From positions 1 through 23,589 of IMG/VR virus record IMGVR_UViG_3300025120_000560: a stretch of 23,589 nt of DNA; one strand, written 5' to 3'. Every line of letters begins with the position of its first letter. The first letter of the stretch is position 1. Positions 1 to 23,589 of this stretch are shown in pieces. A program made the translations under genes and the position numbers. This DNA is from a virus. The notes beneath the pieces are model-generated. The model saw only the letters and a program-made list of their open reading frames with translations, was not told the DNA's origin and did no database searches.

Positions 1-921
1 TTTAACAAAGGTATTCCCCTAGGCAAAGTATCAGTACTTGCCGGTGAGTCTGGTGCAGGAAAATCATACATTGCATCAGGCAACATTATTAAAAACGCAC
101 AGGATCAAGGTATATTTGTAATATTAGTTGATTCTGAGAATGCACTAGACGAGGCTTGGCTACAAGCACTTGGTGTTGACACTGACGAAAAAAAATTATT
201 AAAATTAAGTTTGTCAATGGTCGATGACGTTGCAAAAACTGTATCAGAGTTTATGAAAGAATACAGAACAGAACATGCAGAAAACAGAGACAATGCTCCA
301 AAAGTTTTATTTGTAGTTGACTCGTTAGGTATGTTGCTTACTCCAACAGATGTAGATCAGTTTAACAAAGGTGAGATGAAAGGTGACTTGGGTCGTAAGC
401 CTAAGGCCTTGACAGCACTTGTAAGAAACTGTGTTAATATGTTTGGTTCATGGAACGTAGGCTTAATGGCTACTAATCACACATATGCATCGCAAGATAT
501 GTTTGATCCAGACGACAAGATATCAGGAGGACAAGGATTTATATATGCATCTAGTATTGTTGTTGCAATGAAGAAACTTAAATTAAAAGAAGATGAAGCA
601 GGAAACAAAGTTACAGATGTACGAGGTATTAGAGCGGCTTGTAAAGTAATGAAAACAAGGTACGCTAAACCTTTTGAAAGTGTACAAGTTAAGATTCCAT
701 ACGAAACTGGAATGAATCCTTATTCAGGATTGCTTGATTTATTTGAGAAAAAAGGCGTAATAAAGCAACAAGGTAACAGATTAAAGTATGTCGATTCTAA
801 AGGTGTTGAAACCATAGAGTTCCGAAAAAACTGGACCGGTGATAAATTAACAAAAGTCATGAATGACTTTGCTAATATAACTGACCAGGAGACAGCAGAA
901 GATGGAACAGACAATGGATAG
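1..921 (+). CDS. uvsX: UvsX RecA-like recombinase (5' end outside window)
   Basis: The reading frame is open from base 1 to a TAG at 919-921, giving 306 residues of a protein that begins upstream. A Walker A P-loop (GESGAGKS, residues 15-22 of the fragment) is followed by a strand ending VDSENALDE, as in RecA/UvsX, and by a Walker B-like strand VLFVVDSLGML. T4 UvsX has about 390 residues, so roughly 80 N-terminal residues are missing. The family forms ATP-dependent filaments on single-stranded DNA and catalyses strand exchange in recombination-dependent phage replication. The uvsY-like mediator lies two genes downstream, as expected for a T4-type recombination block. An internal ATG at 211 would drop the P-loop and is not the start. 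The call is secure; only the 5' end is unknown. Confidence 0.93.
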   Translation, partial: FNKGIPLGKVSVLAGESGAGKSYIASGNIIKNAQDQGIFVILVDSENALDEAWLQALGVDTDEKKLLKLSLSMVDDVAKTVSEFMKEYRTEHAENRDNAPKVLFVVDSLGMLLTPTDVDQFNKGEMKGDLGRKPKALTALVRNCVNMFGSWNVGLMATNHTYASQDMFDPDDKISGGQGFIYASSIVVAMKKLKLKEDEAGNKVTDVRGIRAACKVMKTRYAKPFESVQVKIPYETGMNPYSGLLDLFEKKGVIKQQGNRLKYVDSKGVETIEFRKNWTGDKLTKVMNDFANITDQETAEDGTDNG

Positions 922-1150
922 TGCTCAAATAGAAGAAATTTGGACAACAGTAACACACTACATTCCGGAGCGGCAAAAACTAGATTGTGCAGTAGATTTT
1001 GTTAAAACACTTGTAGACCAAGGTGTTGATATGAGAACACTAAAGGCCGCACAAGAATATGATGAAAAACTAACAGAAGCAATCACAATAGTTTTACAAG
1101 ATGCCGACGATGATGAATTTGTAGATACTGAATTTTATGAGGATAGATGA
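902..1150 (+). CDS. Small acidic protein between uvsX and uvsY
   Basis: This is an 82-residue protein with a strongly acidic tail (DADDDEFVDTEFYEDR). It overlaps the end of uvsX by 20 bp, and a Shine-Dalgarno-like AGGAGA at about 887-892 supports the ATG at 902. Its stop overlaps the start of the uvsY-like gene by 4 bp, so the three genes are probably translated from one message. I remember similar short acidic proteins beside recombination genes in marine T4-like phages, but no domain is recognisable. An accessory role in the UvsX/UvsY recombination step is possible from position alone and is an inference. Confidence 0.75.
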   Translation: MEQTMDSAQIEEIWTTVTHYIPERQKLDCAVDFVKTLVDQGVDMRTLKAAQEYDEKLTEAITIVLQDADDDEFVDTEFYEDR

Positions 1151-1605
1151 GTTGGTACCTTACTATAAGTAGAGACATTTCAAAAATACCAGAGTGTATC
1201 TTACACTACAATAAAGAATACGAAACAGCACGTAAAGAATGCGGCATATGGGGTAATTTAGAAAAATCCTCAGCGGCACTTCCAGGAATTGTTGAACATA
1301 GATTTCAACAACTTCAAGAAATAGAAGCAATACTTGAATATCTTAACATAGAAAAAAGAAAATTAAGATCAACGCATTTTAAAAAATATTTAGAAAATTA
1401 TCAAAGAGCACTATCAAGTCGAGATGTTGAAAAATATGTAGATGGTGAAGCGGATGTGGTAGACTTTGATAAAATTGTAAATGAATTTGCTTTACTTAGA
1501 AACCGTTGGTTGGGCATAACCAAAGGACTTGATCAAAAACAATGGCAAATAACCAATATTGTGAAACTTAGAGTAGCAGGAATGGAAGATGCCACGATCA
1601 AATAG
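1147..1605 (+). CDS. uvsY: UvsY-like recombination mediator
   Basis: This 152-residue, mostly helical, lysine- and glutamate-rich protein is close in size to T4 UvsY (137 aa). Family knowledge: UvsY helps load UvsX on single-stranded DNA covered by gp32. The call rests on length, helical composition, the pattern with central KRKLRSTHFKKYLENYQRAL and C-terminal residues LLRNRWLGI, and its place immediately after uvsX and the small acidic gene. A GAGG at about 1139-1142 sits just before the ATG. Its 3' end overlaps the next gene by 17 bp. No catalytic motif exists in this family, so the identification is weaker than for uvsX or uvsW. Confidence 0.72.
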   Translation: MSWYLTISRDISKIPECILHYNKEYETARKECGIWGNLEKSSAALPGIVEHRFQQLQEIEAILEYLNIEKRKLRSTHFKKYLENYQRALSSRDVEKYVDGEADVVDFDKIVNEFALLRNRWLGITKGLDQKQWQITNIVKLRVAGMEDATIK

Positions 1606-4870: not shown

Positions 4871-5723
4871 AAACAGCAGTTCCATTGTTAAATTCTTCAG
4901 GAGTAAACTGCTGATATGCTAAAGAATTAAGCCAATTACTAGGATCAACATAATTTAAACTTTCTATTTTACTTAGATCTGTATCACAGATCGATTCTGC
5001 AAAACTACTTTGATGACACACAACAGGAACTCCTTCGCATAAACTTTCTACGGCACTAATACTACAACTAGTAACACATGCGTAAGCGTTTTCAAGTTGT
5101 TTCTCAATAGGAATAACTGCTTCGCTTGGCCCACTGGTTCCACGTCCTCGAGGTTTGTGTCTTATTATAATAGGTCTATCAGTATGTTGTTTTATTTCTT
5201 TTATGGTTTTATCCAACCAATCTTGTTCATTAATAAAATTGTTGATACCTGGACTACTAGGACAAACTAAAATATGATCTCCTTTGTTAGTTTTATCTTT
5301 CACTTGCACATTAAATTTTTGTAATCTTTTATTGTCAAGGCCATGAATATAGCCTACGTGTATTTTATTTTTGCATATTCTCCAATAATGATTGTTGGGT
5401 TTTAAATTAGTGTTGTCAAATCTACCAAAGTATGGCGTATCTGTAAACCACCAATTTTGACCTGCTTCATCTATCTGATGTATTCCAAAGTATGGCGTAT
5501 CTGTAAACCACCAATTTTGACCTGCTTCATCTATCTGATGTATTAGATTAGTATTATTGTTGACTAATCCCCAAAACATAGATTGTGTGTCGTCATTTAA
5601 AAAATAATTTAAGTTATTGTCTGCAAACTTTACGTCTTCGATCCAATGTGTTCGAACGCCATTAAAGACTTCCCAACATTTACTTTTTGGATTGTTAGAT
5701 GGTGCGTAGATTGTTAACATCAA
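4842..5723 (-). CDS. GT-B-like glycosyltransferase paralogue with 20-aa internal duplication
   Basis: The protein has 293 residues. Its C-terminal half carries the pattern shared with three other genes of the island: RPIIIRHKPRG, then YACVTSCSISAVESLCEGVPVVC, then an NGTAVSILKEI ending. This resembles GT-B capsule or teichoic-acid-type transferases (His/Lys-Pro loop, then a Ser-x-x-x-x-Glu nucleotide-sugar loop). Residues 61-80 are repeated exactly as 81-100 because of a 60-bp tandem duplication; without it the protein would be 273 aa. The duplicated block ends in WWFTDTPYFG, aligned with FYFMDHGYF of the 7459 paralogue, so a conserved N-domain motif exists twice. It overlaps the upstream SGNH gene by 29 bp and is probably translated from the same message. 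Confidence 0.72.
   Translation of the reverse strand: MMLTIYAPSNNPKSKCWEVFNGVRTHWIEDVKFADNNLNYFLNDDTQSMFWGLVNNNTNLIHQIDEAGQNWWFTDTPYFGIHQIDEAGQNWWFTDTPYFGRFDNTNLKPNNHYWRICKNKIHVGYIHGLDNKRLQKFNVQVKDKTNKGDHILVCPSSPGINNFINEQDWLDKTIKEIKQHTDRPIIIRHKPRGRGTSGPSEAVIPIEKQLENAYACVTSCSISAVESLCEGVPVVCHQSSFAESICDTDLSKIESLNYVDPSNWLNSLAYQQFTPEEFNNGTAVSILKEIKVL
5425..5544. repeat. Perfect 60-bp tandem duplication (2 copies)
   Basis: Copies at 5425-5484 and 5485-5544 are identical over all 60 bases. The first and last bases outside the copies do not continue the match, so the unit is exactly 60 bp. It lies inside the minus-strand transferase gene and adds 20 residues in frame. Confidence 0.98.
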
Positions 5724-7468: not shown

Positions 7469-8334
7469 TTGGAATACACACCACAAAACCAAGGACACAA
7501 CGATATGTTGACGCTTTTGTAAAAGGTACACCAGGCCCAAATAAGATATATCAATTTAGAGACCTAAAAGAACTTCCAAAAGAAAATATAACCATGTACG
7601 GTATACTTGCAGGATCAGGTGAAGTTTATAAATTGTGTGAAAAACAAAATAAAGATTTTTACTTTATGGATCATGGTTATTTTACAAATGCTCATGACTA
7701 CCCACATTGGTTAAGGATAACAAAAAATAAACACTGTCAAAACAAATTGACTCACAAAAAAAGTGATCGATATGAAAAGTATTTTAAAGAAGAAATTAAA
7801 CCATGGCAAAAAAGCGGTGGAAAAATTTTAGTATTACCACCTACAAACGCAATATCAAATTTTTTCAAAGTTGGAAATTGGATAGATCAAACTTTAAAAA
7901 TATTAAAAACCAACACAGACAGAATAATAGATGTGAGAGAAAAACCTTATAATCCTACAATTGCAACTGATCATGTGGGAGCAACAATAAAAGTTGATAA
8001 ACCAACAAAACAACAAGGTAATACAACTGATCATGTGGGAGCAACTATAAAAGTTGATAAACCAACAAAACAACAAGGTAATATAAATTGGCAAGATTAT
8101 TTTGCCTGCGTAACTTATAACAGCAACACAACGTTGGCTAGTCTGCACAACGGTGTACCTGTCTTTTGCGATAGTGTTAATTGTGCGGCGGCTCCTATTT
8201 CGGAAACTAATTTGGCCAATATAGAAACGCCTAAATACGAAGATAGAATGACATTGTTTGCAAGTCTAGCATATAACAACTTTAACCTTACAGAAATGCA
8301 AGATGGCACTGCATGGAAAATCTTAAATGGCTGA
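7459..8334 (+). CDS. GT-B-like glycosyltransferase paralogue with 20-aa internal duplication
   Basis: This 291-residue protein is related to the genes at 4842-5723 (-), 9114-10090 and 11012-11884. Shared features are FYFMDHGYF in the N-domain, KILVLPPTNAISNFF (start of the C-domain), YFACVTYNSNTTLASLHNGVPVFC, and the tail ANIETPKYEDR then EMQDGTAWKIL. The fold guess is GT-B, capsule-transferase type. Around residues 170-209 a 20-residue block is present twice, separated from the functional loop by only a few residues; without it the protein would be 271 aa. The repeat is rich in Lys, Asp, Gln and Thr and likely forms a surface loop or strand pair. Overlaps: 10 bp with the upstream gene and 8 bp with the downstream methyltransferase. 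Confidence 0.72.
   Translation: MSIVGIHTTKPRTQRYVDAFVKGTPGPNKIYQFRDLKELPKENITMYGILAGSGEVYKLCEKQNKDFYFMDHGYFTNAHDYPHWLRITKNKHCQNKLTHKKSDRYEKYFKEEIKPWQKSGGKILVLPPTNAISNFFKVGNWIDQTLKILKTNTDRIIDVREKPYNPTIATDHVGATIKVDKPTKQQGNTTDHVGATIKVDKPTKQQGNINWQDYFACVTYNSNTTLASLHNGVPVFCDSVNCAAAPISETNLANIETPKYEDRMTLFASLAYNNFNLTEMQDGTAWKILNG
7964..8083. repeat. 60-bp tandem duplication, 59/60 identical (2 copies)
   Basis: Copies at 7964-8023 and 8024-8083 differ only at 7986 (A) versus 8046 (T). The difference is silent at protein level (ACA/ACT, both Thr). The unit adds 20 residues in frame to the transferase at 7459-8334. Confidence 0.98.
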
Positions 8335-9124
8335 TAAATTAAAACCTGAACATACAGAGATAGTTGAAAAAATTCGTATTCTTGAAAGCGAAGTAGTAAC
8401 AGCAAAACAGAGATTCAAGAAATATCACAACTACTATGCACCAGAAGACATAGTAAAAAGTTCAAAATACGTTTTGTCGTTTGGAGTAGGTGGTAACTGT
8501 GCTTTTGAAAAATTAATGTGTTTCGACAATCCAAATTTAGAAATACAAATGTTCGATCCCACACCATGGACAAGACAAAATATAAATTCCATATTAAACG
8601 GTAGTGGAAAAAAATATTTTAAACATTCACAAACTGCTATGGCGTTTGCAGAAACAGTTGTTAAAAAAAATATAAAATATATTCCAATTGGGTATGCACC
8701 TACTAATGGCAAACAAAAATTTTACTATACACCCTTAAAAAACGATGCAGGAGAAATAATGTCTGTAAAAAATCAATGGAAAAGTTTTAGTGCGTTTAAT
8801 CCTGATGGAACCAGATTAGCCACAGAAGTAGACTTTAAAAATATAGAAACAATTATGCATGATGCAAATTGGAGCACAGTTGATATACTTAAAACTGATA
8901 TAGAAGGACATTGGTATAATTTTGCAAAAGAAATACTAGACAAACAAATAGATTTTAAATACTGGGTGACAGAAATAGAATTAGGATTAAACGACAATTA
9001 TGAAACAAATTTTGAACAAATTAGAGAAATATGTAGTGCATTTAAATCAAAATACAAAATTGTTATAAACAGACAAAGATTAAAACCAATGCTTGAATTA
9101 GGATTTTTAAAAAATGAAAGTTGA
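8327..9124 (+). CDS. FkbM-type SAM-dependent methyltransferase-like protein
   Basis: This 265-residue protein shows a glycine-rich SAM-binding motif, LSFGVGGNCAFE, an acidic strand IQMFDPTP placed where the ribose-binding Asp/Glu of motif II lies, and VDILKTDIEGHWY, the typical FkbM (Methyltransf_21) motif IV. FkbM-type enzymes O-methylate sugars or other hydroxyls on small molecules and surface polymers. Lying between transferase genes, it likely methylates the same glycan, which is an inference. An N-terminal helix of about 40 residues precedes the catalytic domain. The gene overlaps both neighbours by 8-11 bp. Confidence 0.78.
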   Translation: MADKLKPEHTEIVEKIRILESEVVTAKQRFKKYHNYYAPEDIVKSSKYVLSFGVGGNCAFEKLMCFDNPNLEIQMFDPTPWTRQNINSILNGSGKKYFKHSQTAMAFAETVVKKNIKYIPIGYAPTNGKQKFYYTPLKNDAGEIMSVKNQWKSFSAFNPDGTRLATEVDFKNIETIMHDANWSTVDILKTDIEGHWYNFAKEILDKQIDFKYWVTEIELGLNDNYETNFEQIREICSAFKSKYKIVINRQRLKPMLELGFLKNES

Positions 9125-10090
9125 AATTTTTAGACGAACAGTAAAAGACCGTAGGAGAGGCAACAGTTATGAGTTGCTTTTTCATTTAGCAGAAGGCATA
9201 AAAGCCACTGGCGACGAACCTGTAATTGTGCATGAACATCGAACAGGCCCCACTGTTGAAGATGTTTGGCTATGGAGGAGACAAACAGATGCATCATACT
9301 AAAGGTAGAAGAAGAGAACTTGCAAATATATGTCGTGCAAAAAAAATTCCTTTGATAACATTCGACGGCGGAGTTCTATCTAGTTTTGGCAATGTGTCTA
9401 CGTCACCTGAACATCATTTTCGAGTAGCACTTACATCATTTTCGAGTAGCACTTTACACACCAATGAACAACGGCAACTTTCTAAGTGATGACTCACCTA
9501 GCGATAGATGGGAAATGATGAAAGAAAAATTTAATGTAAAGTATGAACCATGGCGTAAAAGCAATCCTGACGATCCTATACTTTTTGTTTTACAGCCAAA
9601 AGACAATTGGAGCATGAATGAATTAGATCCATTAGACTGGTTTAACGATGTATACAAAAAGGTTCGACCATTGACTAAAAGAAAATTTATTGTAAGGCCA
9701 CACCCTAATCACGCTGATGTAATGTACCAAAGACGAAAAGAATTTCCTCAAGATATTGAATTAGAAATACCTCAAAGACATTTTGTTGGTGATCAGAAAA
9801 AGCATTATAGATTTCATTTCCAACAAGCAATAACCAATTGCCATGCTGTTGTTACTCACAATTCTACTGCCTCAACTGACTCCTGCGTCAGGGGTATTCC
9901 TACCTTTTGCACTAGCGATCTTGCACTTTGTTGGCCTGTAGCAAATAAAGATTTAACAAAAATTGAAACTCCAGAAATGCCTGATAGAACACAATGGGTC
10001 AATGACCTTGGATATAAAATGTGGAGCATAAAAGAAATACGTGACGGCACAGTGTATAAAAGATTTAAACAAAAATTAGGATTAATATGA
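9114..10090 (+). pseudogene. GT-B-like glycosyltransferase paralogue, broken by two frame changes
   Basis: The coding potential runs through three frames: 9114 to about 9265, then about 9266 to 9440, then about 9440 to 10090. Joined, the product would be about 318 aa and aligns with the paralogue at 11012-11884: residues reading HFRVALYTPMNNGNF then SDDSPSDRWE match its KMGINGINRDADF then NDSYSEDRWK, and PWRKSNPDDPILF matches its PWKRTGKNIII. The C-domain is intact, with FIVRPHPNH, HAVVTHNSTASTDSCVRGIPTFC and EIRDGTVYKRF. The second break is exactly explained by a 22-bp tandem duplication (9411-9454); the first lies in GATGTTTGGC at 9261-9270 and would be repaired by two extra T. A downstream ATG at 9464 could still yield a 208-residue C-terminal piece. 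Mutation or sequence error cannot be told apart here. Confidence 0.82.
9411..9454. repeat. Perfect 22-bp tandem duplication causing a frameshift
   Basis: The unit at 9411-9432 is repeated exactly at 9433-9454. Because 22 is not a multiple of 3, it shifts the frame by one. Removing one copy restores a continuous frame through this site with a sequence that aligns to the paralogue at 11012-11884. Confidence 0.97.
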
Positions 10091-13620: not shown

Positions 13621-14949
13621 ATGCCTAAAACAGAACCTAAAACAATAAACGACCTAATCAAAATACTAGCATATAATGATTGGGCCTGGGATTCAACTGG
13701 CGTTTGTGCTCATCCTAAAGATCGTCCAACTGTAACATCTTTAGCCGAGGCTGATTATGCTTGGACTGAAAGACAGGCCAACCTAGCAGTTATTTTGTGT
13801 AAAAGATACAAAACAAAATTTGAGTCAAAAGGTTTTGATATTGATGAAACTTTAAAAAATAAAAAATTTGCTCAACCATTTAGAGTAATAAGTTCAGCCA
13901 AAACAATTGAAATTGATGTTGATAAAGATGAGGAGCAAGTGATTATTTTACGTTTTCCCTACATTAAAAAACTTGTAAATTTAGTTAGATGTTTGAAACA
14001 ACATAAAGGACTACCTGCATCATATTTTGTTTACGATGGCGGAAGTAAAACATGGACTATAAGAAAAACTGACGTAACAACATTTTATCTTGTATCTATA
14101 GGAATAAGATATAATTTTGATTTCACATCTGACCAAATACTAAATGAATATGAAGAAATTAAAAAAGAAAAATTAATTTTCAAAAGTCCTTGTGCAAGAA
14201 TGATAAAAGATAAAATACAAATTTCAAACGGATCAGAAGCATTAAATGAGTATTGGAAAAATAATTTAGAAAATAAAAAAACGTTGATTCAATTAGACAA
14301 TTGTAAAAACTTAGGTGTAAATCAAAGAAAAATAAAAGCAAAGGCATATACTGATTTAGGAAAAGAGATTGCACACAATAGTAATTCAATGCTATGGATA
14401 GATAAAAAGTTATACTCGAAAGATCAAATTATAGCAGGACTAAATGAACTAGACTCATTTCCGTTGATAATGCCTGTGTCTGGCGACATTACTGACACAC
14501 CTGAAGCAGTTCTAGATATGCAAAATTGGATTCAGTGTTTTAAACGTCATGGTTTTGATGAAGGCAAACATTTTAGTTTTGCTTTTGATTTTACAGAGCC
14601 TAAGCAGTATAAGGACAAAAACAAGGTAGAAAAACGATTTACAGTTCAAAACGAAAAAATGTCCGATGACGTTTTCCAAATTGCATATGACTTATACCAA
14701 ATGTCTAGATCATTTAAAAGAGTAGACGAACATACTAAAGTTTATTTTGTAAGAAATAAATTAAGTAGATCATTTATGCGATCCAATTTAAAATTGAAAT
14801 GTTCAATCACAGCGATAGGTGGTGGTTTTTATCATACCGAAGGAGAAAAGGTTAAAAGACTACTTGATAATCTTCCAAAAAAGTTGTATTATAGTACATA
14901 TCAGCCCATGTCTTATCAATGGAAAGACCGTGCTATAAACAAACTATGA
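13621..14949 (+). CDS. Unknown 442-aa protein upstream of uvsW, possibly HARP-like domain
   Basis: The protein has 442 residues and its stop overlaps the uvsW start (ATGA), indicating translational coupling. Around residues 100-170 it has a strand-helix segment followed by FVYDGGSKTWTIRKTD, a pattern like the HARP-type domain found on annealing helicases of the SMARCAL1 group; this resemblance is weak and inferred. The C-terminal third includes FPLIMPVSGDITDTPEA and FSFAFDFTEPKQY. No nuclease, ATPase or polymerase motif is visible. Being first gene behind the strong promoter at 13543-13570 and coupled to UvsW, it may be an accessory factor in branch migration or fork remodelling. Confidence 0.7.
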   Translation: MPKTEPKTINDLIKILAYNDWAWDSTGVCAHPKDRPTVTSLAEADYAWTERQANLAVILCKRYKTKFESKGFDIDETLKNKKFAQPFRVISSAKTIEIDVDKDEEQVIILRFPYIKKLVNLVRCLKQHKGLPASYFVYDGGSKTWTIRKTDVTTFYLVSIGIRYNFDFTSDQILNEYEEIKKEKLIFKSPCARMIKDKIQISNGSEALNEYWKNNLENKKTLIQLDNCKNLGVNQRKIKAKAYTDLGKEIAHNSNSMLWIDKKLYSKDQIIAGLNELDSFPLIMPVSGDITDTPEAVLDMQNWIQCFKRHGFDEGKHFSFAFDFTEPKQYKDKNKVEKRFTVQNEKMSDDVFQIAYDLYQMSRSFKRVDEHTKVYFVRNKLSRSFMRSNLKLKCSITAIGGGFYHTEGEKVKRLLDNLPKKLYYSTYQPMSYQWKDRAINKL

Positions 14950-16409
14950 GCTCATGTAAATTAGTAATTAAAGACGAAGTAAACGTTAAATTTGAAAATT
15001 TATCCTTGGAATGGCGTAAAAGACTTTCCAACAAATTTAAATATGAAGTTCCATATGCAAGACATTTACCAGCAGTAAAACTTGGACGATGGGATGGCAA
15101 GATTGCATTTTTTGGACTAGGAGGCACAACTTATTTGAGCCTGGTTGATCAAATTTTGCCAATTCTAGAAGACGGCGGAGTGTATGTTGATTTTGAAGAT
15201 CAAAGAACAAAACACAATTTTGAGTTTAATAAAATAGATAAAGATTATCTCAGTAATATAAACTGGCCCAAAGGACACCCATGTGATGGACAACCAATTG
15301 TGTTAAGAGATTATCAAGTTGAAACAATTAATAAATTTATTGAGAATCCACAATGTATTCAAGAGATCGCAACTGGTGCAGGCAAGACCATTATTACAGC
15401 GGCACTGTGCCAGTTAGTCGAACCATATGGTCGAACACTTACTATTGTTCCAAACAAAAGTCTAGTTACACAAACAGAAGAAGACTTTCTTGCTTGTAAT
15501 TTAGACACAGGTGTTTATTACGGTGATAGAAAAGAATTAGGCAGATACAACACAATTGCCACTTGGCAATCATTGAATGTACTAGAAAAGAAAAGCAAAG
15601 ACGATCACACAGCAGATTTTTTAGAAGCAATAAAAGGTATTAATACAATTATAATTGATGAAGTACACATGGCTAAAGCAGATGTTTTAAAAAGAATGTT
15701 GACCGGACCTTTTGCACATTGTGGTATACGTTGGGGCCTTACAGGCACAGTGCCAAAAGCAGATTTTGAATTTATGGGAATCAAATGTTCCATCGGCGAA
15801 GTAGTTAACAAAATTGCGGCTAAGACACTGCAAGACAAAGGTGTACTTGCTAATTGTAATGTTAATATTATACAAACAATTGAAACAAAAATGTTTACAA
15901 ACTATCAAGAAGAACTAAAATGGCTTACAACTGATGATCGGAGAATGTCTTTTGTTGCACAAACTATTAAATCAATATCAAATTCAGGAAACACCCTTAT
16001 ACTTGTTGATAGAATAAGTGCAGGTGAAACCCTAAAGAAAAAATTACCTGGCTCAGTTTTTATATCAGGATCAACCAAAAACCCCGACAGAAAGGAACAA
16101 TATGATGAAGTATCTACAGCAACGAATAAAATTATTATTGCCACATATGGAGTTGCCAGTGTTGGCATTAATATTCCTCGTATTTTTAATCTTGTTCTCA
16201 TAGAACCAGGAAAATCATTTGTACGAGTAATTCAATCAATAGGACGTGGCATAAGAAAGGCACAGGACAAAGACCATGTAGAAATATGGGATATCACTAG
16301 TAGTTGTAAATTTGCGAAAAGACACCTTACTCAAAGAAAAAAGTTTTACAAAGAGGCCAATTACCCTTATAATATAGAAAAAATAAATTATGAAAATTCT
16401 TACACTTGA
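14946..16409 (+). CDS. uvsW: UvsW-like superfamily 2 helicase
   Basis: The start at 14946 (487 aa) is favoured over 14919 because of the ATGA overlap with the preceding stop. The N-terminal LGRWDGKIAFFG is the UvsW-type DNA-binding domain, followed by LRDYQVETINKF, Walker A ATGAGKT (A142-T148), DEVH box (D238-H241), GLTGTVP (motif III), ATYGVASVGINIPR (motif V) and VIQSIGRGIRKAQ (motif VI). Length matches T4 UvsW (about 500 aa). UvsW unwinds branched DNA and R-loops and promotes branch migration and fork regression, shifting replication from origin- to recombination-dependent mode. It overlaps the next gene by 20 bp. Confidence 0.95.
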   Translation: MSSCKLVIKDEVNVKFENLSLEWRKRLSNKFKYEVPYARHLPAVKLGRWDGKIAFFGLGGTTYLSLVDQILPILEDGGVYVDFEDQRTKHNFEFNKIDKDYLSNINWPKGHPCDGQPIVLRDYQVETINKFIENPQCIQEIATGAGKTIITAALCQLVEPYGRTLTIVPNKSLVTQTEEDFLACNLDTGVYYGDRKELGRYNTIATWQSLNVLEKKSKDDHTADFLEAIKGINTIIIDEVHMAKADVLKRMLTGPFAHCGIRWGLTGTVPKADFEFMGIKCSIGEVVNKIAAKTLQDKGVLANCNVNIIQTIETKMFTNYQEELKWLTTDDRRMSFVAQTIKSISNSGNTLILVDRISAGETLKKKLPGSVFISGSTKNPDRKEQYDEVSTATNKIIIATYGVASVGINIPRIFNLVLIEPGKSFVRVIQSIGRGIRKAQDKDHVEIWDITSSCKFAKRHLTQRKKFYKEANYPYNIEKINYENSYT

Positions 16410-17140: not shown

Positions 17141-17570
17141 AAAATTTTTTGAACTAAGAAATGGTTTGAAAGCCATCGACTTTAGAAACAAAGACTATTT
17201 TGATAGAATAGATGATAAAGAAAAATCGTTGTACAGTCCTTACATGATAATGCGATATGCATCAAGTGTAAGTGGTGATAAGTTTTATCAAGAACACTAT
17301 GTTGAAATGATAAACGAGTGTATTAACAAACACTTGTTTACGTTATCAAGCAAACACAAAAAACTTTGTTGGATGTTGACAGCCATGTGTGGTGGCCTTA
17401 AACAACAGTTTCATCCTTGGATAAAACCTATGAAACGTGTACCTAATAAAAGTTTAAAACAATTGCAAACACTTTTTCCTAATGTTAAAGAAGCAGATCT
17501 GGAAACACTTGACAAAATAATAACTGATCGAGAATTAGAAGAACTATTAGAAGAACATGGAATCAACTAA
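17118..17570 (+). CDS. Possible gp62-like clamp-loader small subunit
   Basis: This 150-residue helical protein has the motif SPYMIMRYAS, similar in placement to the SPF/Y-hydrophobic-x-R segment of phage clamp-loader A subunits (gp62), then KKLCWMLTAMCG, FHPWIKPMKR, and a C-terminal helix TDRELEELLEEHG like the LTDEQL tail of cyanophage gp62. In T4, gp62 works with gp44 to load the gp45 clamp. No gp44 or gp45 gene is next to it here, which weakens the call; a conserved unknown marine-phage protein is the alternative. It overlaps the zinc-finger gene by 14 bp. Confidence 0.5.
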   Translation: MKQKNTNRKFFELRNGLKAIDFRNKDYFDRIDDKEKSLYSPYMIMRYASSVSGDKFYQEHYVEMINECINKHLFTLSSKHKKLCWMLTAMCGGLKQQFHPWIKPMKRVPNKSLKQLQTLFPNVKEADLETLDKIITDRELEELLEEHGIN

Positions 17571-18243
17571 ATTTAAGTGTCCCTACTGTGGCAAGGAGTT
17601 CACAAGAGAGAGAACACTTCAAGTCCATATGTGTGAACCAAAGAGAAGATATCTGCAGAAAAATGAAAAATGGGTGCAGAATGGTTTTATAGTATTTCAA
17701 CGTTTTTACGAAATACATCAAAAAACTAATAAGAAAAAAACATACGATGATTTTTGTAGTTCATCATACTACAATGCGTTTGTAAAATTTGGTCGATTCA
17801 TTATGCATACTAATCCGTTGTATCCTGAAAAATATATTGACTACGTGGTGCTGTCTGGAGTTAAACTAGATCATTGGAGCAGAGATGATTTGTATGAACA
17901 ATATCTAAAAGACACTTTAAAGACTGAACCTGTAGAAGCCGCACTACGAAGATCTATAGCAACAATGATGGACTGGGCCACTGAACAAAATGCACAATGG
18001 TCAGACTATTTCAGATTAGTCAATACCAGTCGAGCAGTTCAACACATACAAACTGGAAAACTATCGCCATGGCTGGTGCTAGGTTGTGACGCGGGTAAAA
18101 AGATGTTACAATCATTTTCGGATGAACAACTTCAAATGATACAAACTTATATTGATCCAGAGTTTTGGAGAAACAAATTTAAAAACTATCCTGCAGATCA
18201 TTTGTTCGTGCAAGAAACTTCAAAGGAGGCACACATTGAGTAA
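17557..18243 (+). CDS. Zinc-finger protein of unknown function
   Basis: This 228-residue protein starts with a single C2HC-type finger: CPYC (C8, C11), then H24 and C26 in VHMCEP, preceded by the usual aromatic (F6). The rest is helical, with YDDFCSSSYYNAFVKFGRF and SPWLVLGCDAGKKMLQSF, and shows no known domain. Zinc fingers of this type bind nucleic acid or protein. From context (replication and recombination block) a regulatory or DNA-linked role is possible but not shown. The 3' end contains the Shine-Dalgarno sequence for the next gene. Confidence 0.72.
   Translation: MESTKFKCPYCGKEFTRERTLQVHMCEPKRRYLQKNEKWVQNGFIVFQRFYEIHQKTNKKKTYDDFCSSSYYNAFVKFGRFIMHTNPLYPEKYIDYVVLSGVKLDHWSRDDLYEQYLKDTLKTEPVEAALRRSIATMMDWATEQNAQWSDYFRLVNTSRAVQHIQTGKLSPWLVLGCDAGKKMLQSFSDEQLQMIQTYIDPEFWRNKFKNYPADHLFVQETSKEAHIE
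18224..18229 (+). promoter_or_regulatory. Consensus Shine-Dalgarno for TTG-started gene
   Basis: AGGAGG lies 6 bases before the TTG at 18236. Such a full consensus is rare in this window, and it decides the start of the downstream gene in favour of TTG over the ATG at 18152. Confidence 0.8.
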
Positions 18244-18460
18244 GTTCAATATAGAGATAGATGATCATTTGGACATGGAGGTTGGAGACAGTGTGGTAGT
18301 GATTAAAAAAGATGGCACAGTTGGCAAAGTGATACTTCCGGAAATGAATAATGAAATACAACACACTGCTGGATACAAAAAAATGCTTCAAGTATTAGAA
18401 ATACTAAAACCTGGTTCGAAAGAAGATATTATCAAACACAATAGAAAGAAATTACACTAA
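18236..18460 (+). CDS. Small protein with TTG start, unknown function
   Basis: The gene encodes 74 residues from a TTG codon at 18236. An ATG at 18152 would extend the frame by 28 residues but lies deep in the upstream gene and has no ribosome site, whereas AGGAGG stands 6 bases before the TTG. The protein has a strand-rich N-half (DMEVGDSVVVIKKDGTVGKV, barrel-like) and a helical basic C-half ending KHNRKKLH. The stop overlaps the next ATG (TAATG), so it is coupled to the DnaE-like gene. Function is unknown. Confidence 0.72.
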   Translation: MSKFNIEIDDHLDMEVGDSVVVIKKDGTVGKVILPEMNNEIQHTAGYKKMLQVLEILKPGSKEDIIKHNRKKLH

Positions 18461-19062
18461 TGCCTGATGTAGATATAGATTTTTATGATAGAGAAAAAGC
18501 GTTAAAACTTTTTAAACACACACCTGCATCAATGATCAAAGAAAACAAAATTGAAAAACACAAAACAGGTGTTTACTTTCATAAAATTCCAACTGACCCA
18601 GTAACAAAATATTCAAGTATCGATTACAAAAAAGCAGAAGATAGAGGCTACTTCAAAATTGATTGTCTAAATGTTAATATCTATAAAAATGTTGCTAATG
18701 AGCAAGAACTAGTTGAACTAATGATACAGGAACCAAATTGGGACATGCTAAAAGATAAAAAAATTGTTGATGAGTTGTTTCATTTAAATGGACATTTCAA
18801 TATTGTTTCTAAATTAGAGCCTAAAACAATTGAACAACTAGCGGCTGTGTTAGCGATAATACGTCCAGCCAAAAGACGACTAATGCACAAGTATTGGAAA
18901 GATATAATGCAGGAAGTTTGGGTAAAACCAACAGACGGCAGTTACTTTTTCAAAAAGTCACATGCTGTTGCTTATGCACAGGCTATTGTTGTACAAATGA
19001 ATTTGATAGCAACTGATAAATATACTTTTAGTGTACAATCGGAAACTAAAAAAACTAACTAA
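18460..19062 (+). CDS. Miniature DnaE-like (Pol III alpha palm) protein
   Basis: The 200-residue protein follows the order of motifs of the bacterial replicative polymerase alpha subunit with the intervening domains removed. PDVDIDF (residues 2-8) matches the catalytic PDxDxDF; HKTGVYFH (34-41) matches the His-Ala-Gly-Gly-Val-Val region; GYFKIDCLN (63-71) matches GLVKFDFLGL with D68 at the third catalytic Asp; WDMLKDKKIV then LEPKTIEQLAAVLAIIRPAKR (119-139) match the FQ/LxP-AxxALxRPG region; and FFKKSHAVAYA (163-173) matches the FNKSHAxAYA motif. Full alpha is about 1100 aa. There is no PHP, thumb-tip or OB domain. Activity is unknown. It overlaps the previous gene by one base. Confidence 0.72.
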   Translation: MPDVDIDFYDREKALKLFKHTPASMIKENKIEKHKTGVYFHKIPTDPVTKYSSIDYKKAEDRGYFKIDCLNVNIYKNVANEQELVELMIQEPNWDMLKDKKIVDELFHLNGHFNIVSKLEPKTIEQLAAVLAIIRPAKRRLMHKYWKDIMQEVWVKPTDGSYFFKKSHAVAYAQAIVVQMNLIATDKYTFSVQSETKKTN

Positions 19063-19315
19063 AAAATCTAAAATTATCAAAGTAGACCTGCCCAATGATT
19101 ACACTTGCACAGTGGAACTAGCTAAACAATGCGATTACGTAAAGGACAAAAGAAGATCTGTTAGATGCAAGGTCCCAAGTGATTGGAATGCTAAAGAATT
19201 TATAGCTCATTCATTGCCCATGTGGCAAGATATTTGGATAAAGAAAAAAGTAGAAATGACATGGAACGCTAGACAGCGTTCTATTTTCTTAAAGTATATT
19301 AGACGGGTCGTCTAA
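19031..19315 (+). CDS. Small basic protein, GTG start
   Basis: This frame encodes 94 residues starting with GTG at 19031, overlapping the DnaE-like gene by 32 bp. The protein is basic with a strand-rich middle (DYTCTVELAKQC, RRSVRCKVPSDW) and a tail with WNARQRSIFLKYIRRVV. No domain is recognised and no ribosome site supports the start, so the true N-terminus could be a few codons later. The 3' end overlaps the opposing gene by 17 bp. Confidence 0.6.
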   Translation: MYNRKLKKLTKKSKIIKVDLPNDYTCTVELAKQCDYVKDKRRSVRCKVPSDWNAKEFIAHSLPMWQDIWIKKKVEMTWNARQRSIFLKYIRRVV

Positions 19316-19682
19316 CCAATTGGATTGTTCTTCTCTTGATTCTCTTCTTTGCGATGTCGCTTAATCGCACACATGGTCCATGTACAATTTGGATATCTTT
19401 TGTGGCCAATGAAACTAGTGTTGTTTTAAAATAACTCCAGTCTCCTTTTAGGAAGATATTGATTGGTATTTTTCTATTTGATTCCCACCACCAGGTTTCG
19501 CCTAGTTTGAGGTAATTCATTTTGTCTTCTGGTAGCATTATTCTTCCATAGTCATAAAAACTAGTTACTTGGCTATCTTGATTTGATATGATACCAACAA
19601 ACTCAAGGTCTCCCTTGCGTATTAATGATAAAAAGGGAAATTTCTTTCCTAGTGTTTCAAAAACTTCATTCATACTATTCAA
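19299..19682 (-). CDS. Conserved-looking protein of unknown function
   Basis: This 127-residue protein runs leftward. The start may be at 19682 or at the second ATG at 19673 (124 aa). It contains FVGIISNQDSQVTSFYDY, GETWWWESNRKIPI, FLKGDWSYFKTTL and a basic C-terminal part RLSDIAKKRIKRRTIQLVRR. The many aromatic residues and strong coding character argue for a real gene. From memory, similar proteins exist in cyanophages as hypothetical proteins; this is not verified. The basic tail suggests nucleic-acid contact, a weak inference. Confidence 0.72.
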   Translation of the reverse strand: MNSMNEVFETLGKKFPFLSLIRKGDLEFVGIISNQDSQVTSFYDYGRIMLPEDKMNYLKLGETWWWESNRKIPINIFLKGDWSYFKTTLVSLATKDIQIVHGPCVRLSDIAKKRIKRRTIQLVRRPV

Positions 19683-20520: not shown

Positions 20521-21528
20521 ATGAATCTGATCCAGTCGACTATTCTTACTTCGTTGCCTGCTGGCCGTAAAAAAACGCCATCAGGTTGGATTGCTTTTAA
20601 TGCTCCTTGTTGTATTCACAACGGAGAAACCCAAGATAAGAAAAAACGTGGTGGCATAATGACCACAGCAGACGGTACAACGTCTTATCACTGTTTCAAT
20701 TGTGGATTCAAAGCCAGTTACGTGATTGGAAGAAGGTTGTCGCAAAAGATGCGAACGTTTATGAGTTACATCGGTATTGCAGATGATACAATTCGTAAAT
20801 TAGCAATCGAAGCAATGAGACACGAAGAAGGAGATATAAAATATCAAAAGAAAAAATTTGTAACATTTAATAAAAAAGATTTACCCAAACATACCAAAAG
20901 GCTTGAACAATGGCTAGAACAATACACAACACTAAGTTCGAGTGAACAAAAAAATATAGACAATCTTTTGAATTATCTTGGCAGTAGAGGTATAGGTCCT
21001 GACTGGTATGATTTCATGTACTCTCCAAATAATTATTTTGATGTAAACAAAAGATTATTAATTCCATTTTATTGGCGTGGAGACATTGTAGGATTTACTG
21101 GTAGACTATTTGAGCCTTTAGAAAAAGTAAAATATTTTACAGACGTCCAACCTGGATATGTTTTTAATATGGACGCACAGGATTGGACAAGAAAATTTGT
21201 AATAGTGACAGAAGGACCGTTTGATGCAATTACCATTTCTGGAGTCAGCATACTTGGATCGGAGGTAAATGATATACAGAGGGAGTTGATCAACGGATTG
21301 AATAGAAAAGTAATTGTTGTACCAGATAGAGATCAACCAGGACAAAAACTAATAGATCAAGCAATAGAGTTTGGTTGGAGTGTTGCTTTTCCAAAGTGGG
21401 AGGAATCGGTTGCTGATGTGGCTGATGCTGTGTTAAAATATGGAAGACTGTTTACTATACAATCTATTTTAAAAACAACAGAATCTACTAAACTAAAAAT
21501 AGATTTGAATAGGAAATTATATGGATAA
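20521..21528 (+). CDS. 61: DNA primase, T4 gp61-like
   Basis: This 335-residue protein has an N-terminal zinc-binding site formed by C30/C31, H33, C58 and C61 (PCCIHNG then YHCFNCGF), and a Toprim domain with E231 in VTEGPFDAI and D269-x-D271 in VPDRDQPGQ. The order is that of T4 gp61 (342 aa). The enzyme makes the short RNA primers for lagging-strand synthesis as a primosome with gp41. AAAGG directly abuts the ATG, which is unusual spacing. The gene is followed by a small coiled-coil gene and gp41, consistent with a primosome operon. Confidence 0.93.
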   Translation: MNLIQSTILTSLPAGRKKTPSGWIAFNAPCCIHNGETQDKKKRGGIMTTADGTTSYHCFNCGFKASYVIGRRLSQKMRTFMSYIGIADDTIRKLAIEAMRHEEGDIKYQKKKFVTFNKKDLPKHTKRLEQWLEQYTTLSSSEQKNIDNLLNYLGSRGIGPDWYDFMYSPNNYFDVNKRLLIPFYWRGDIVGFTGRLFEPLEKVKYFTDVQPGYVFNMDAQDWTRKFVIVTEGPFDAITISGVSILGSEVNDIQRELINGLNRKVIVVPDRDQPGQKLIDQAIEFGWSVAFPKWEESVADVADAVLKYGRLFTIQSILKTTESTKLKIDLNRKLYG

Positions 21529-21679
21529 GGAAATAATAGATTTAAAAAAAGAGGTTAAAGATCTTAAAAAAGTAATAAATGACTTAGATAAAAAATTATC
21601 TAAGCATATAGTTTTTATTGAACAGGTATATGGACCTCTACAAAAATCAATAGATAAATTTAAAAGGTTTTTTAAATAA
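21521..21679 (+). CDS. Short coiled-coil protein between primase and helicase
   Basis: This 52-residue frame was read by hand. The ATG at 21521 overlaps the primase stop by 8 bases and the TAA overlaps the helicase ATG by one (TAATG), which supports real, coupled translation. Residues 4-30 follow a heptad pattern (IIDLKKEVKDLKKVINDL onward) and are highly charged, predicting a coiled coil, followed by a short hydrophobic and basic end (DKFKRFFK). A small adaptor for gp61/gp41 is an attractive guess from position but has no direct evidence. Confidence 0.75.
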   Translation: MDKEIIDLKKEVKDLKKVINDLDKKLSKHIVFIEQVYGPLQKSIDKFKRFFK

Positions 21680-23100
21680 TGGCTGAATATACTTTTGATG
21701 TACAAAAACTTTATTTAGAAATGATGCTGGCAGATGCAGAGTCGTATGCTAGAGCACAAAACATTTTTGATTCAAAATCATTTGATAGAAAACTACAACC
21801 TATTGCGGCATTTATAAAAGACTACTCAGAAGAGTACAAAGTATTGCCTGAAGTAGAACAAGTAAATGCCAAATTTGATATTAAACTTAAATCAGCAAAA
21901 GATCTAGATCCAAGTCACTTTAATTGGTTACTGGACGAGTTTGAAACATTTTCCCGACATAAAGCACTGGAACGTGCAATACTTGAATCAGCAGACTTGC
22001 TGGAAAAAGGCGACTATGCTCCTGTTGAAGACAAGGTCAAAGATGCAGTCAACATTGGATTGACTCGTGACATGGGTACAGACTACTTTGAAGATCCAAA
22101 AGGTAGATTGGAGAACTTAAAGAACTCCAATGGTCAGATCAGTACAGGGTGGGCCAATTTGGACAAGAAACTGTTCGGTGGATTCAACCGAGGTGAACTA
22201 AACATTTTTGCAGGCGGATCAGGTGCAGGAAAAAGTTTGTTCTTACAGAATCTTGCTGTAAATTGGGCCACCGCTGGTTTGAACACTTGCTATATTAGTT
22301 TTGAATTGAGTGAACAACTGGTTGCCATGAGAATGGATGCAATGATTACTGGCATACCAACTAGAAAAGTATTTCCTGAAATTGAAAACGTAGAAATGAA
22401 AGTCAAGATGTTGGCTAAGAAATCAGGTAACTTGCAAATAAAATATTTGCCAAGTGGTAAAACAGTTTTAGATATTAAGTCTTATATCAAAGAACTAGAA
22501 CTAAAAACTAAAAAGAAAATTGATTGTATACTAGTTGACTATTTGGATCTCATGATGCCAAAATCCAAAAGAATAAGTCCAGCGGACTTGTTCATAAAAG
22601 ACAAATATGTGTCTGAAGAACTAAGAAACTTGTCAACAGAAAACAACTTGTTGCTGTGTACAGCATCGCAACTTAATAGAGCCTCTGTTGAAGAAATTGA
22701 ATTTGATCATTCTCATATAGCAGGCGGTTTATCTAAAGTGCAGACAGCAGACAACGTGTTTGGTATATTCACATCAAGAGCAATGAAAGAACGTGGTAGA
22801 TATCAAATACAGTTTATGAAAACAAGATCAAGTTCAGGCGTTGGACAAAAAATAGATTTAGAATTTGATGTCGACACTTTAAGAATAAGAGACTTGGCTG
22901 AGGATCAAGAATATCAACAATTCAAAAAGCAATCATCAACTATATATGATTCACTGAAACAAAAAAGCAAAGTGTCAACAGATAAGCCTAAAGAACTAGA
23001 TCCAAGAAAAGGTGATAACGTCGGCAAAGTAAAAGCCACAGTAGAAGGTGGCAAACTGAGACAATTACTAAATGAACTACACTCGGATGAAGAACAGTAA
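21679..23100 (+). CDS. 41: Replicative DNA helicase, T4 gp41-like
   Basis: This 473-residue protein is nearly the length of T4 gp41 (475 aa). Walker A is GGSGAGKS (179-186); the Walker B strand reads ILVDYLDLMMP, and a conserved SQLNRAS and FMKTRSSSGVG follow as in DnaB-family RecA-fold helicases. The N-terminal 170 residues form the helical collar domain. It forms a hexamer that moves 5'-3' on the lagging strand and activates gp61. The C-terminal 80 residues are charged and probably flexible. It overlaps the endonuclease III gene by 14 bases. Confidence 0.95.
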   Translation: MAEYTFDVQKLYLEMMLADAESYARAQNIFDSKSFDRKLQPIAAFIKDYSEEYKVLPEVEQVNAKFDIKLKSAKDLDPSHFNWLLDEFETFSRHKALERAILESADLLEKGDYAPVEDKVKDAVNIGLTRDMGTDYFEDPKGRLENLKNSNGQISTGWANLDKKLFGGFNRGELNIFAGGSGAGKSLFLQNLAVNWATAGLNTCYISFELSEQLVAMRMDAMITGIPTRKVFPEIENVEMKVKMLAKKSGNLQIKYLPSGKTVLDIKSYIKELELKTKKKIDCILVDYLDLMMPKSKRISPADLFIKDKYVSEELRNLSTENNLLLCTASQLNRASVEEIEFDHSHIAGGLSKVQTADNVFGIFTSRAMKERGRYQIQFMKTRSSSGVGQKIDLEFDVDTLRIRDLAEDQEYQQFKKQSSTIYDSLKQKSKVSTDKPKELDPRKGDNVGKVKATVEGGKLRQLLNELHSDEEQ

Positions 23101-23589
23101 TGACATTCTCTACATTTACGAAAAATTAAGTAAAACTTATCCACAGTATTCGAATCGCAAACCTAAAGCAAAAATTTACAGCAAAGCATATACCAGTTTA
23201 ATTGGTGTTATGTTGTCTGCACAAAGTCAAGATAAGAGAACTGCGATTGCTTGTAGACAACTTTTTGCCTTGTCCGATAATCCGGAAGACATGATAAAAT
23301 TAACTAGAGAAGAAGTTATTGAAGCAATTAGGCCTGCAGGATTACATAATGCTAAAAGCAAAAACATTCTTGCTACAAGCAAAATGTTGTTAGAAAATTT
23401 TAATGGACGTGTGCCACAAACACAAAAAGAACTAATGACACTACCGGGAGTTGGTAGGAAAAGTTCTGACATTGTAATGAGATTTGTTTGGGGACAACCA
23501 CACATAGCAGTTGATACACACGTTTTTAGATTATTATGGAGACTAGGTTGGGCAGACAATCTTAATGAAGCAAAAGCAAGTATAACTGT
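23087..23589 (+). CDS. nth: Endonuclease III-like DNA glycosylase/AP lyase (3' end outside window)
   Basis: The ATG at 23087 opens a frame that runs off the window after 167 codons. The helix-hairpin-helix is LPGVGRKS with K125, the probable Schiff-base lysine, and the catalytic Asp is D143 in AVDTHVFRL; the 18-residue spacing equals that of E. coli Nth (K120/D138). VMLSAQSQDKR is the typical N-terminal block. The enzyme removes oxidised pyrimidines and nicks the abasic site. The iron-sulfur cluster cysteines would lie beyond the window end, so their presence is unknown. It overlaps gp41 by 14 bases. Confidence 0.9.
   Translation, partial: MKNSNDILYIYEKLSKTYPQYSNRKPKAKIYSKAYTSLIGVMLSAQSQDKRTAIACRQLFALSDNPEDMIKLTREEVIEAIRPAGLHNAKSKNILATSKMLLENFNGRVPQTQKELMTLPGVGRKSSDIVMRFVWGQPHIAVDTHVFRLLWRLGWADNLNEAKASIT

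What the first reader, a model, noticed from the sequence alone, without database searches (positions are those of the whole stretch)
18460..19062. A 200-residue mini DnaE: catalytic palm motifs of bacterial Pol III in a T4-type phage
The small protein keeps, in the right order, PDxDxDF, the Gly-Val-containing region, K-x-D-C-L (third Asp), the L-x-P/AxxA-RP region and F-x-KSHAxAYA, with everything else of the about 1100-residue alpha subunit missing. The phage replicates with a T4-type system (gp41, gp61, UvsX), so a stand-alone C-family palm is unexpected. It may be a minimal polymerase or terminal-transferase-like enzyme, a decoy of the host replisome, or a repair factor acting with UvsW. 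Keeping all three Asp argues against simple decay.
Basis: partly seen in the sequence, partly recalled or inferred. Interest (0 to 1): 0.78.

Follow-up and report, generated by a model that had tools for sequence, protein, structure and literature searches.

The report
One half of a split mini-polymerase
This small phage gene encodes the metal-binding half of a stripped-down bacterial-type DNA polymerase whose nucleotide-binding half is a separate gene elsewhere in related giant-phage genomes; this design was predicted in 2021 but, as far as I could find, has never been tested in the laboratory.

Summary
In detail: window 18460-19062 encodes a 200-aa protein with the C-family (DnaE/PolC) active-site motifs in order. 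Profile alignment maps D3/D5/D68 to E. coli Pol III alpha D401/D403/D555. All three Asp are invariant in 149 distinct homologues, and purifying selection is strong. An AlphaFold model (pLDDT 91) matches only C-family polymerases and aligns along its whole length with E. coli alpha 400-815.

The "stand-alone palm" reading is wrong. In 58 of 60 phage records that carry this gene, a second gene of about 175 aa was found, in mapped genomes 11-224 kb away. It encodes the preceding half of the palm with the triphosphate-binding GRGS motif, aligns to E. coli 278-396, and stops exactly where this protein starts. The split point is the same in 140 N-halves. The two proteins most likely assemble into one intein-free, thumb-less Pol III-alpha catalytic core used beside the phage's own family-B replicase.

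Iyer et al. 2021 (PMC7824862) already described this split minimal Pol III in group 2.2 jumbo phages, so the window is a new member, from an uncultured, probably marine clade. Its own N-half lies outside the fragment. Relatives also carry a complete 561-603-aa C-family core about 5 kb downstream.

The parts
18460..19062 (+). C-terminal half of a split minimal Pol III alpha catalytic core (200 aa): catalytic Asp strand, third Asp, fingers remnant
   Evidence: PHROG 11778 E 6e-67; PDB profile hits only Pol III alpha; AF2 pLDDT 91; VIA-align Z 9.2 to E. coli alpha 400-815
18463..18483 (+). PDVDIDF, catalytic Asp pair D3/D5 (= E. coli D401/D403)
   Evidence: invariant in 149/149 homologues; profile alignment
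18559..18573 (+). HKTGV, equivalent of the DnaE Gly-Val region; H34 and G37 invariant
18655..18663 (+). K66-I-D68, third catalytic Asp (= E. coli K553-F-D555)
   Evidence: profile alignment to E. coli 541-561; invariant
18862..18873 (+). RPAK, start of the fingers (= E. coli R639-P640)
18955..18975 (+). KSHAVAY, fingers motif (= E. coli K758-S-H760...Y764)
18236..18460 (+). 74-aa ORF (TTG start after AGGAGG) whose stop overlaps the start of the C-half: probable translational coupling
   Evidence: no PHROG match
17557..18243 (+). C2H2 zinc-finger protein, PHROG 11058; a C2H2 protein is also annotated directly upstream of the C-half in phage PAC2
19299..19682 (-). PHROG 11637, small convergent gene; a short opposite-strand gene lies 3' of the C-half in all nine phages inspected
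14919..16409 (+). UvsW-type helicase
   Evidence: phrog_16 E 6.5e-77
1..921 (+). UvsX recombinase (cut by window start)
   Evidence: phrog_97 E 6e-55
1147..1605 (+). UvsY-like mediator
   Evidence: phrog_231 E 1.2e-15
20521..21528 (+). DNA primase (gp61-like)
   Evidence: phrog_47 E 5.5e-39
21679..23100 (+). DnaB-like replicative helicase (gp41-like)
   Evidence: phrog_19 E 6e-72; DnaB_C
23072..23589 (+). endonuclease III-like glycosylase (cut by window end); in clade members with this gene order it is followed by a 561-603-aa PHP-less C-family core
   Evidence: HhH-GPD E 1e-18

Best explanation
The protein is the C-terminal half of a two-gene minimal Pol III-alpha catalytic core. It supplies the strand with the two metal-binding Asp, the third Asp and the DNA/dNTP-contacting fingers residues. 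A separate protein of about 175 aa (PHROG 11127) supplies the first part of the palm with the GRGS loop that binds the incoming triphosphate. SHOWN: sequence and fold of both halves; that they cover E. coli alpha 278-396 and 400-815 end to end; the invariant active site; the same split point in all N-halves examined; co-occurrence in the same genomes. INFERRED: the two chains bind without an intein, complete one active site and carry out DNA synthesis. Because thumb, PHP, beta-binding and OB domains are missing and a family-B replicase is present in complete relatives, the likely role is short-patch or gap-filling synthesis, or synthesis assisting the T4-type recombination-replication machinery (UvsX/UvsY/UvsW), rather than being the main replicase. 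Processivity would have to come from partner proteins; the N-half gene sits beside the clamp-loader gene in several phages. For this particular phage the N-half is inferred from relatives.
For: C-half: PHROG 11778; catalytic residues 149/149; model pLDDT 91; top 14 Foldseek hits all Pol III alpha/PolC; VIA-align Z 6.5-9.8 for 14 C-family chains against at most 3.2 for anything else. N-half: found by full-DnaE profile in complete jumbo phages; PF07733 E 5e-12; PDB profile hit E. coli alpha 318-394, ending at the profile end; model pLDDT 91; Z 9.8-10.9 to E. coli chains at 279-396. GRGSS/GRGSC in 140/140 and stop 33-39 aa after it. Co-occurrence: 57 of 60 listed C-half records also hit by N-half tblastn, one more by profile; 8 of 9 N-half metagenome contigs of 250 kb or more carry the C-half. 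Distances of the two halves correlate (r 0.63, 24 pairs). N-half next to gp44 clamp loader. Family-B polymerase in RaK2, Atu_ph07, Phosso, PAC2.
Against: No complex was modelled: the tool takes no joined chains. No biochemical work on any member was found. The window's own N-half was not seen; contigs of its clade do not reach the clamp-loader locus. One 359-kb N-half contig and one 280-kb C-half contig lack the partner, possibly because they are incomplete. The missing thumb makes efficient primer extension doubtful. Correlated distances may reflect common descent only.
Confidence: 0.78

Rival explanations
1. Stand-alone minimal polymerase or terminal transferase: the 200-aa protein works alone.
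For: Three Asp and fingers residues are invariant; the protein has a confident fold of its own.
Against: It lacks the GRGS triphosphate-binding loop and the first part of the palm, which are encoded by a co-inherited gene with a fixed boundary.
Confidence: 0.06
2. The two halves form a complex, but it is a catalytic nucleotidyltransferase with a non-polymerase job (for example end tailing or repair nucleotidyl transfer).
For: No thumb and no processivity domains; the window gene lies among UvsW/UvsX/UvsY and an endonuclease III-like gene; PolB is already present in relatives.
Against: The retained fingers motifs (RP..K, KSHA..Y) are those of template-directed C-family polymerases.
Confidence: 0.2
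3. Non-catalytic remnant: a scaffold or decoy for the host replisome.
For: Reduced size; loss of all accessory Pol III domains.
Against: All metal-binding and dNTP-region residues are invariant in 149 C-halves and the GRGS motif in 140 N-halves; dN/dS about 0.1; phages of very different hosts share it. A decoy would not need an intact active site.
Confidence: 0.04
4. In the window's clade the C-half has lost its N-half and works with, or is being replaced by, the complete 561-603-aa C-family core encoded a few kb downstream.
For: About 20 loci carry both genes, mostly 4-6 kb apart; no N-half was found on the 42-121-kb contigs of this clade that were searched.
Against: Those contigs also lack the clamp-loader locus where the N-half lives. 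The 561-aa protein has its own GRGS and Asp motifs. A related marine contig with 56-79% identical, collinear proteins carries an N-half. Conservation of the C-half is undiminished in this clade.
Confidence: 0.08

Closest known systems
Split minimal DNA polymerase III alpha of group 2.2 jumbo phages (Iyer et al. 2021, PMC7824862; PHROG 11778 + PHROG 11127)
   Same: Same family by profile, same motifs, same two-gene logic in relatives, same T4-type replication setting.
   Different: Comes from an uncultured clade at most 54% identical to cultured phages; N-half not visible in the 23.6-kb fragment; clade members carry an additional 561-603-aa C-family core.
Bacterial Pol III alpha (DnaE) and PolC
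   Same: Palm/fingers fold and catalytic residues.
   Different: No PHP, thumb, beta-binding, OB or tau-binding regions; palm cut in two at E. coli residue about 396/399; D403-D555 spacing 152 in E. coli against 63 here.
Cyanobacterial split-intein DnaE (from general knowledge)
   Same: DnaE made from two genes.
   Different: No intein on either half: the N-half ends in a stop at ...EFLK and the C-half starts with its own Met at the palm strand.
PHP-less 561-603-aa C-family core next door (P0002; phrog_405)
   Same: C-family palm and fingers (PF07733 E 2e-40).
   Different: Unsplit, larger and highly divergent; a separate gene.

Membership tests
Split minimal Pol III alpha, C-half (PHROG 11778) | Profile membership over the full length | tested here: met
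   E 5.9e-67, residues 3-186 on profile 8-194 of 197
Split minimal Pol III alpha, C-half (PHROG 11778) | Metal-binding Asp triad and fingers motifs | tested here: met
   D3, D5, D68, R135-P136, H168, Y172 invariant
Split minimal Pol III alpha, C-half (PHROG 11778) | Partner N-half with GRGS in the same genome | tested here: inconclusive
   Present in 58 of 60 phage records with the C-half; the window fragment does not cover that locus and shows none
Split minimal Pol III alpha, C-half (PHROG 11778) | Halves encoded by distant genes | tested here: met
   11-224 kb apart in the nine phages mapped, for example RaK2 34 kb and Atu_ph07 182 kb; met in relatives only, in the window phage not seen
Split minimal Pol III alpha, C-half (PHROG 11778) | Family-B replicase in the same genome | tested here: inconclusive
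   Met in four complete relatives; not covered in the window or its clade contigs
Split minimal Pol III alpha, C-half (PHROG 11778) | The two chains assemble into an active polymerase | not testable with these tools
   needs co-purification and assay
Full bacterial Pol III alpha (DnaE/PolC) | PHP, thumb, beta-binding and OB domains | tested here: not met
   200-aa ORF between two stops; the model has no thumb between residues 8 and 66
Full bacterial Pol III alpha (DnaE/PolC) | Fold of palm + fingers from the D401 strand onward | tested here: met
   VIA-align Z 9.2, 195 residues, E. coli 400-815
Full bacterial Pol III alpha (DnaE/PolC) | GRGS triphosphate loop in the same chain | tested here: not met
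   absent from the protein; carried by PHROG 11127 in relatives
Split-intein DnaE | Intein halves at the junction | tested here: not met
   N-half stops 33-39 aa after GRGS; C-half starts with Met at the DxDID strand

The most novel reading that the evidence does not exclude
The C-family active site is genuinely assembled in trans from two unlinked genes, giving a regulated, thumb-less, two-chain DNA polymerase. In the window's clade it coexists with a second, complete PHP-less C-family core and probably a family-B replicase, so one phage would run three replicative-type polymerase systems.
Probability: 0.5. Interest if true: 0.7.

Novelty: new member of a known kind. Interest (0 to 1): 0.45.

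Why it matters
A DNA polymerase whose nucleotide-binding and metal-binding halves are separate proteins would be among the smallest C-family cores known and a natural two-part enzyme. The fixed split point, the invariant active site and the many cultured hosts (including laboratory E. coli K-12 for phage Sharanji) make it directly testable. Many records annotate the C-half as 'hypothetical' or even 'putative membrane protein'.

Tried and rejected
phmmer of the single sequence against the PDB gave only a spurious phosphoribosyltransferase match. A phrog_405 hit in Atu_ph07 was first read from the wrong strand and looked spurious; tblastn then gave the real N-half. PF07733 on the window found nothing, as expected because the C-half has little of the NTPase-domain part. 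Searches for the window clade's own N-half with three queries gave N-halves but none linked to a C-half of at least 70% identity to the window's. RNA introns at the junction (trans-splicing) were looked for with Rfam in seven loci including RaK2, Phosso and SCTP-2: none. Literature searches for biochemistry of the split enzyme found only the 2021 prediction.

Full report
OBSERVATION. The ORF at 18460-19062 (+) encodes 200 residues with the stated motifs. The protein belongs to PHROG 11778 'DNA polymerase' (E 6e-67) and weakly matches full-length phage DnaE families; the Pfam fingers model scores below its cut-off. A profile of 26 homologues finds only Pol III alpha chains in the PDB. In the M. 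tuberculosis chain the motif blocks align in order; in the E. coli chain the FKID block sits on K553-F-D555, and the RP and KSH blocks are likewise placed on the C-family motifs. In 149 distinct homologues the Asp triad, H34, G37, K66, R135, P136, K138, H168 and Y172 never vary. dN/dS against close relatives is 0.05-0.19. The gene is therefore a conserved, selected C-family fragment.

STRUCTURE OF THE C-HALF. AlphaFold2 with 63 viral-contig homologues gives pLDDT 91 and pTM 0.81. Foldseek's first 14 hits are all Pol III alpha or PolC chains, with modest E-values of about 1e-3 to 0.2. VIA-align gives Z 6.5-9.8 for those 14 and at most 3.2 for anything else; the model covers E. coli alpha 400-815 from end to end. 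Residue-level superposition of D3/D5/D68 could not be read from the tool's ranges, so the residue mapping rests on the profile alignment. Against E. coli the protein is shortened between the second and third Asp (63 against 152 residues) and inside the fingers (33 against 121). There is no room for a thumb.

THE MISSING HALF. Searching complete jumbo phages with a full DnaE profile found, besides the C-half, a second small ORF. It is PHROG 11127, about 170-180 aa, with PF07733 at E 5e-12 in Phosso. Its C-terminal 100 residues match E. coli alpha up to about residue 394 and stop there, and its AlphaFold model (pLDDT 91) aligns to 279-396 with Z 9.8-10.9 in E. coli chains. So E. coli 278-396 lies on one protein and 400-815 on the other. 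In 140 N-halves from viral contigs (105 distinct) the motif GRGSS or GRGSC is always present and the stop codon follows 33 residues later in 125 and 34-39 in the rest. The C-half always starts at or a few residues before the DxDID strand. There is no intein, and no Rfam intron in the seven loci tested.

CO-OCCURRENCE. The C-half occurs in 63 phage records. Of the 60 listed, 57 are also hit by N-half tblastn, and Slicko01 (141 kb) by profile. The other two are a 109-kb partial record and Slicko01's sister phage, which was not tested. Three further N-half records are probably the three C-half records not listed. In metagenome contigs of at least 250 kb found through the N-half, 8 of 9 carry the C-half; the smaller contigs mostly do not, as expected if the genes are far apart. 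In mapped phages the distance ranges from 11 to 224 kb. Pairwise distances of 24 N/C pairs correlate (r 0.63), which shows co-inheritance but not contact.

GENOMIC SETTING. Around the C-half the order uvsW ... C2H2 protein ... C-half ... small opposite-strand gene ... primase, DnaB-like helicase recurs from PAC2 and RaK2 to the window. The N-half lies close upstream of the clamp-loader large subunit in Atu_ph07, SCTP-2 and XacN1. RaK2, Atu_ph07, Phosso and PAC2 also encode a family-B polymerase. An epsilon-like exonuclease is annotated near the C-half in RaK2 and XacN1 and reported for CBB and Atu_ph07 (PMC5259590, PMC6102473).

MECHANISM. Shown: two co-inherited proteins with complementary, non-overlapping parts of one C-family palm, each with its share of the active site intact. 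Inferred: they associate, the GRGS loop of one and the Asp triad of the other form one site, and the site adds nucleotides. From the absence of thumb and clamp-binding parts, and from the family-B replicase, I infer an accessory synthesis role (gap or repair synthesis, or one strand in recombination-dependent replication). A non-polymerase nucleotidyltransferase role is the main rival.

WHAT IS KNOWN. Iyer et al. 2021 (PMC7824862; [quoted passage not shown] The CBB paper noted a truncated 172-aa alpha-like protein (PMC5259590). PF07733 was reported in about half of one cluster of marine jumbo phages (PMC9123017), probably the N-half. What this work adds is the window clade, the residue-level conservation count, the fixed split point, the structural tiling on E. 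coli alpha, and quantified co-occurrence.

LIMITS. The window is a 23.6-kb fragment. Its N-half and family-B gene were not seen; the contigs of its clade examined do not contain the clamp-loader locus either. A related contig, G037, with collinear proteins 56-79% identical to a clade contig, does carry an N-half. That makes the partner likely but not proven for this phage. The probable marine origin of the clade rests on my general knowledge of the sample numbers; no tool gave habitats.

NEIGHBOURING SURPRISE. In clade members in which an endonuclease III-like gene follows the helicase, as in the window, the next gene is a 561-603-aa protein with a complete RGSAGSS...PDVDIDF...KVD C-family core and no PHP domain. 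In the window it would begin about 230 bp beyond the right end. If so, this phage has two different C-family cores.

Noticed in passing
L140:97-1782 (-), L139:1540-3234 (+); expected just beyond window 23589: A complete 561-603-aa, PHP-less C-family polymerase core (palm + fingers, with a C-terminal part of about 100 aa not matched by Pfam) follows the endonuclease III-like gene in members of the window's clade; nearest phage-database match only 38% identical (LR756508).
   Followed up: partly
window 5425-5544, 7964-8083, 9411-9454: Three exact or near-exact two-copy tandem duplications (60, 60 and 22 bp) within about 4 kb; the 60-bp ones are in frame in long ORFs, the 22-bp one lies where a gene looks frame-broken (9114-10090). 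Could be slippage or an assembly error.
   Followed up: no
window 17557-18243: C2H2 zinc-finger protein (PHROG 11058) just upstream of the C-half; a C2H2 protein is annotated in the same place in phage PAC2: candidate partner.
   Followed up: no
window 19299-19682 (-): PHROG 11637; a short opposite-strand gene sits 3' of the C-half in all nine phages inspected; function unknown.
   Followed up: no
public phage records; L081:7992-8567: The C-half is annotated as 'putative membrane protein' or 'hypothetical' in many jumbo phage records, and in Atu_ph07 the annotated gene starts downstream of the catalytic DxD strand.
   Followed up: no
L102 and L138 (Alishewanella phage Slicko01, 141 kb): The split pair also occurs in a phage well under the 200-kb jumbo limit, so it is not strictly a jumbo-phage trait.
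   Followed up: partly
window 13621-14949: 442-aa protein upstream of uvsW with no Pfam or PHROG match.
   Followed up: no
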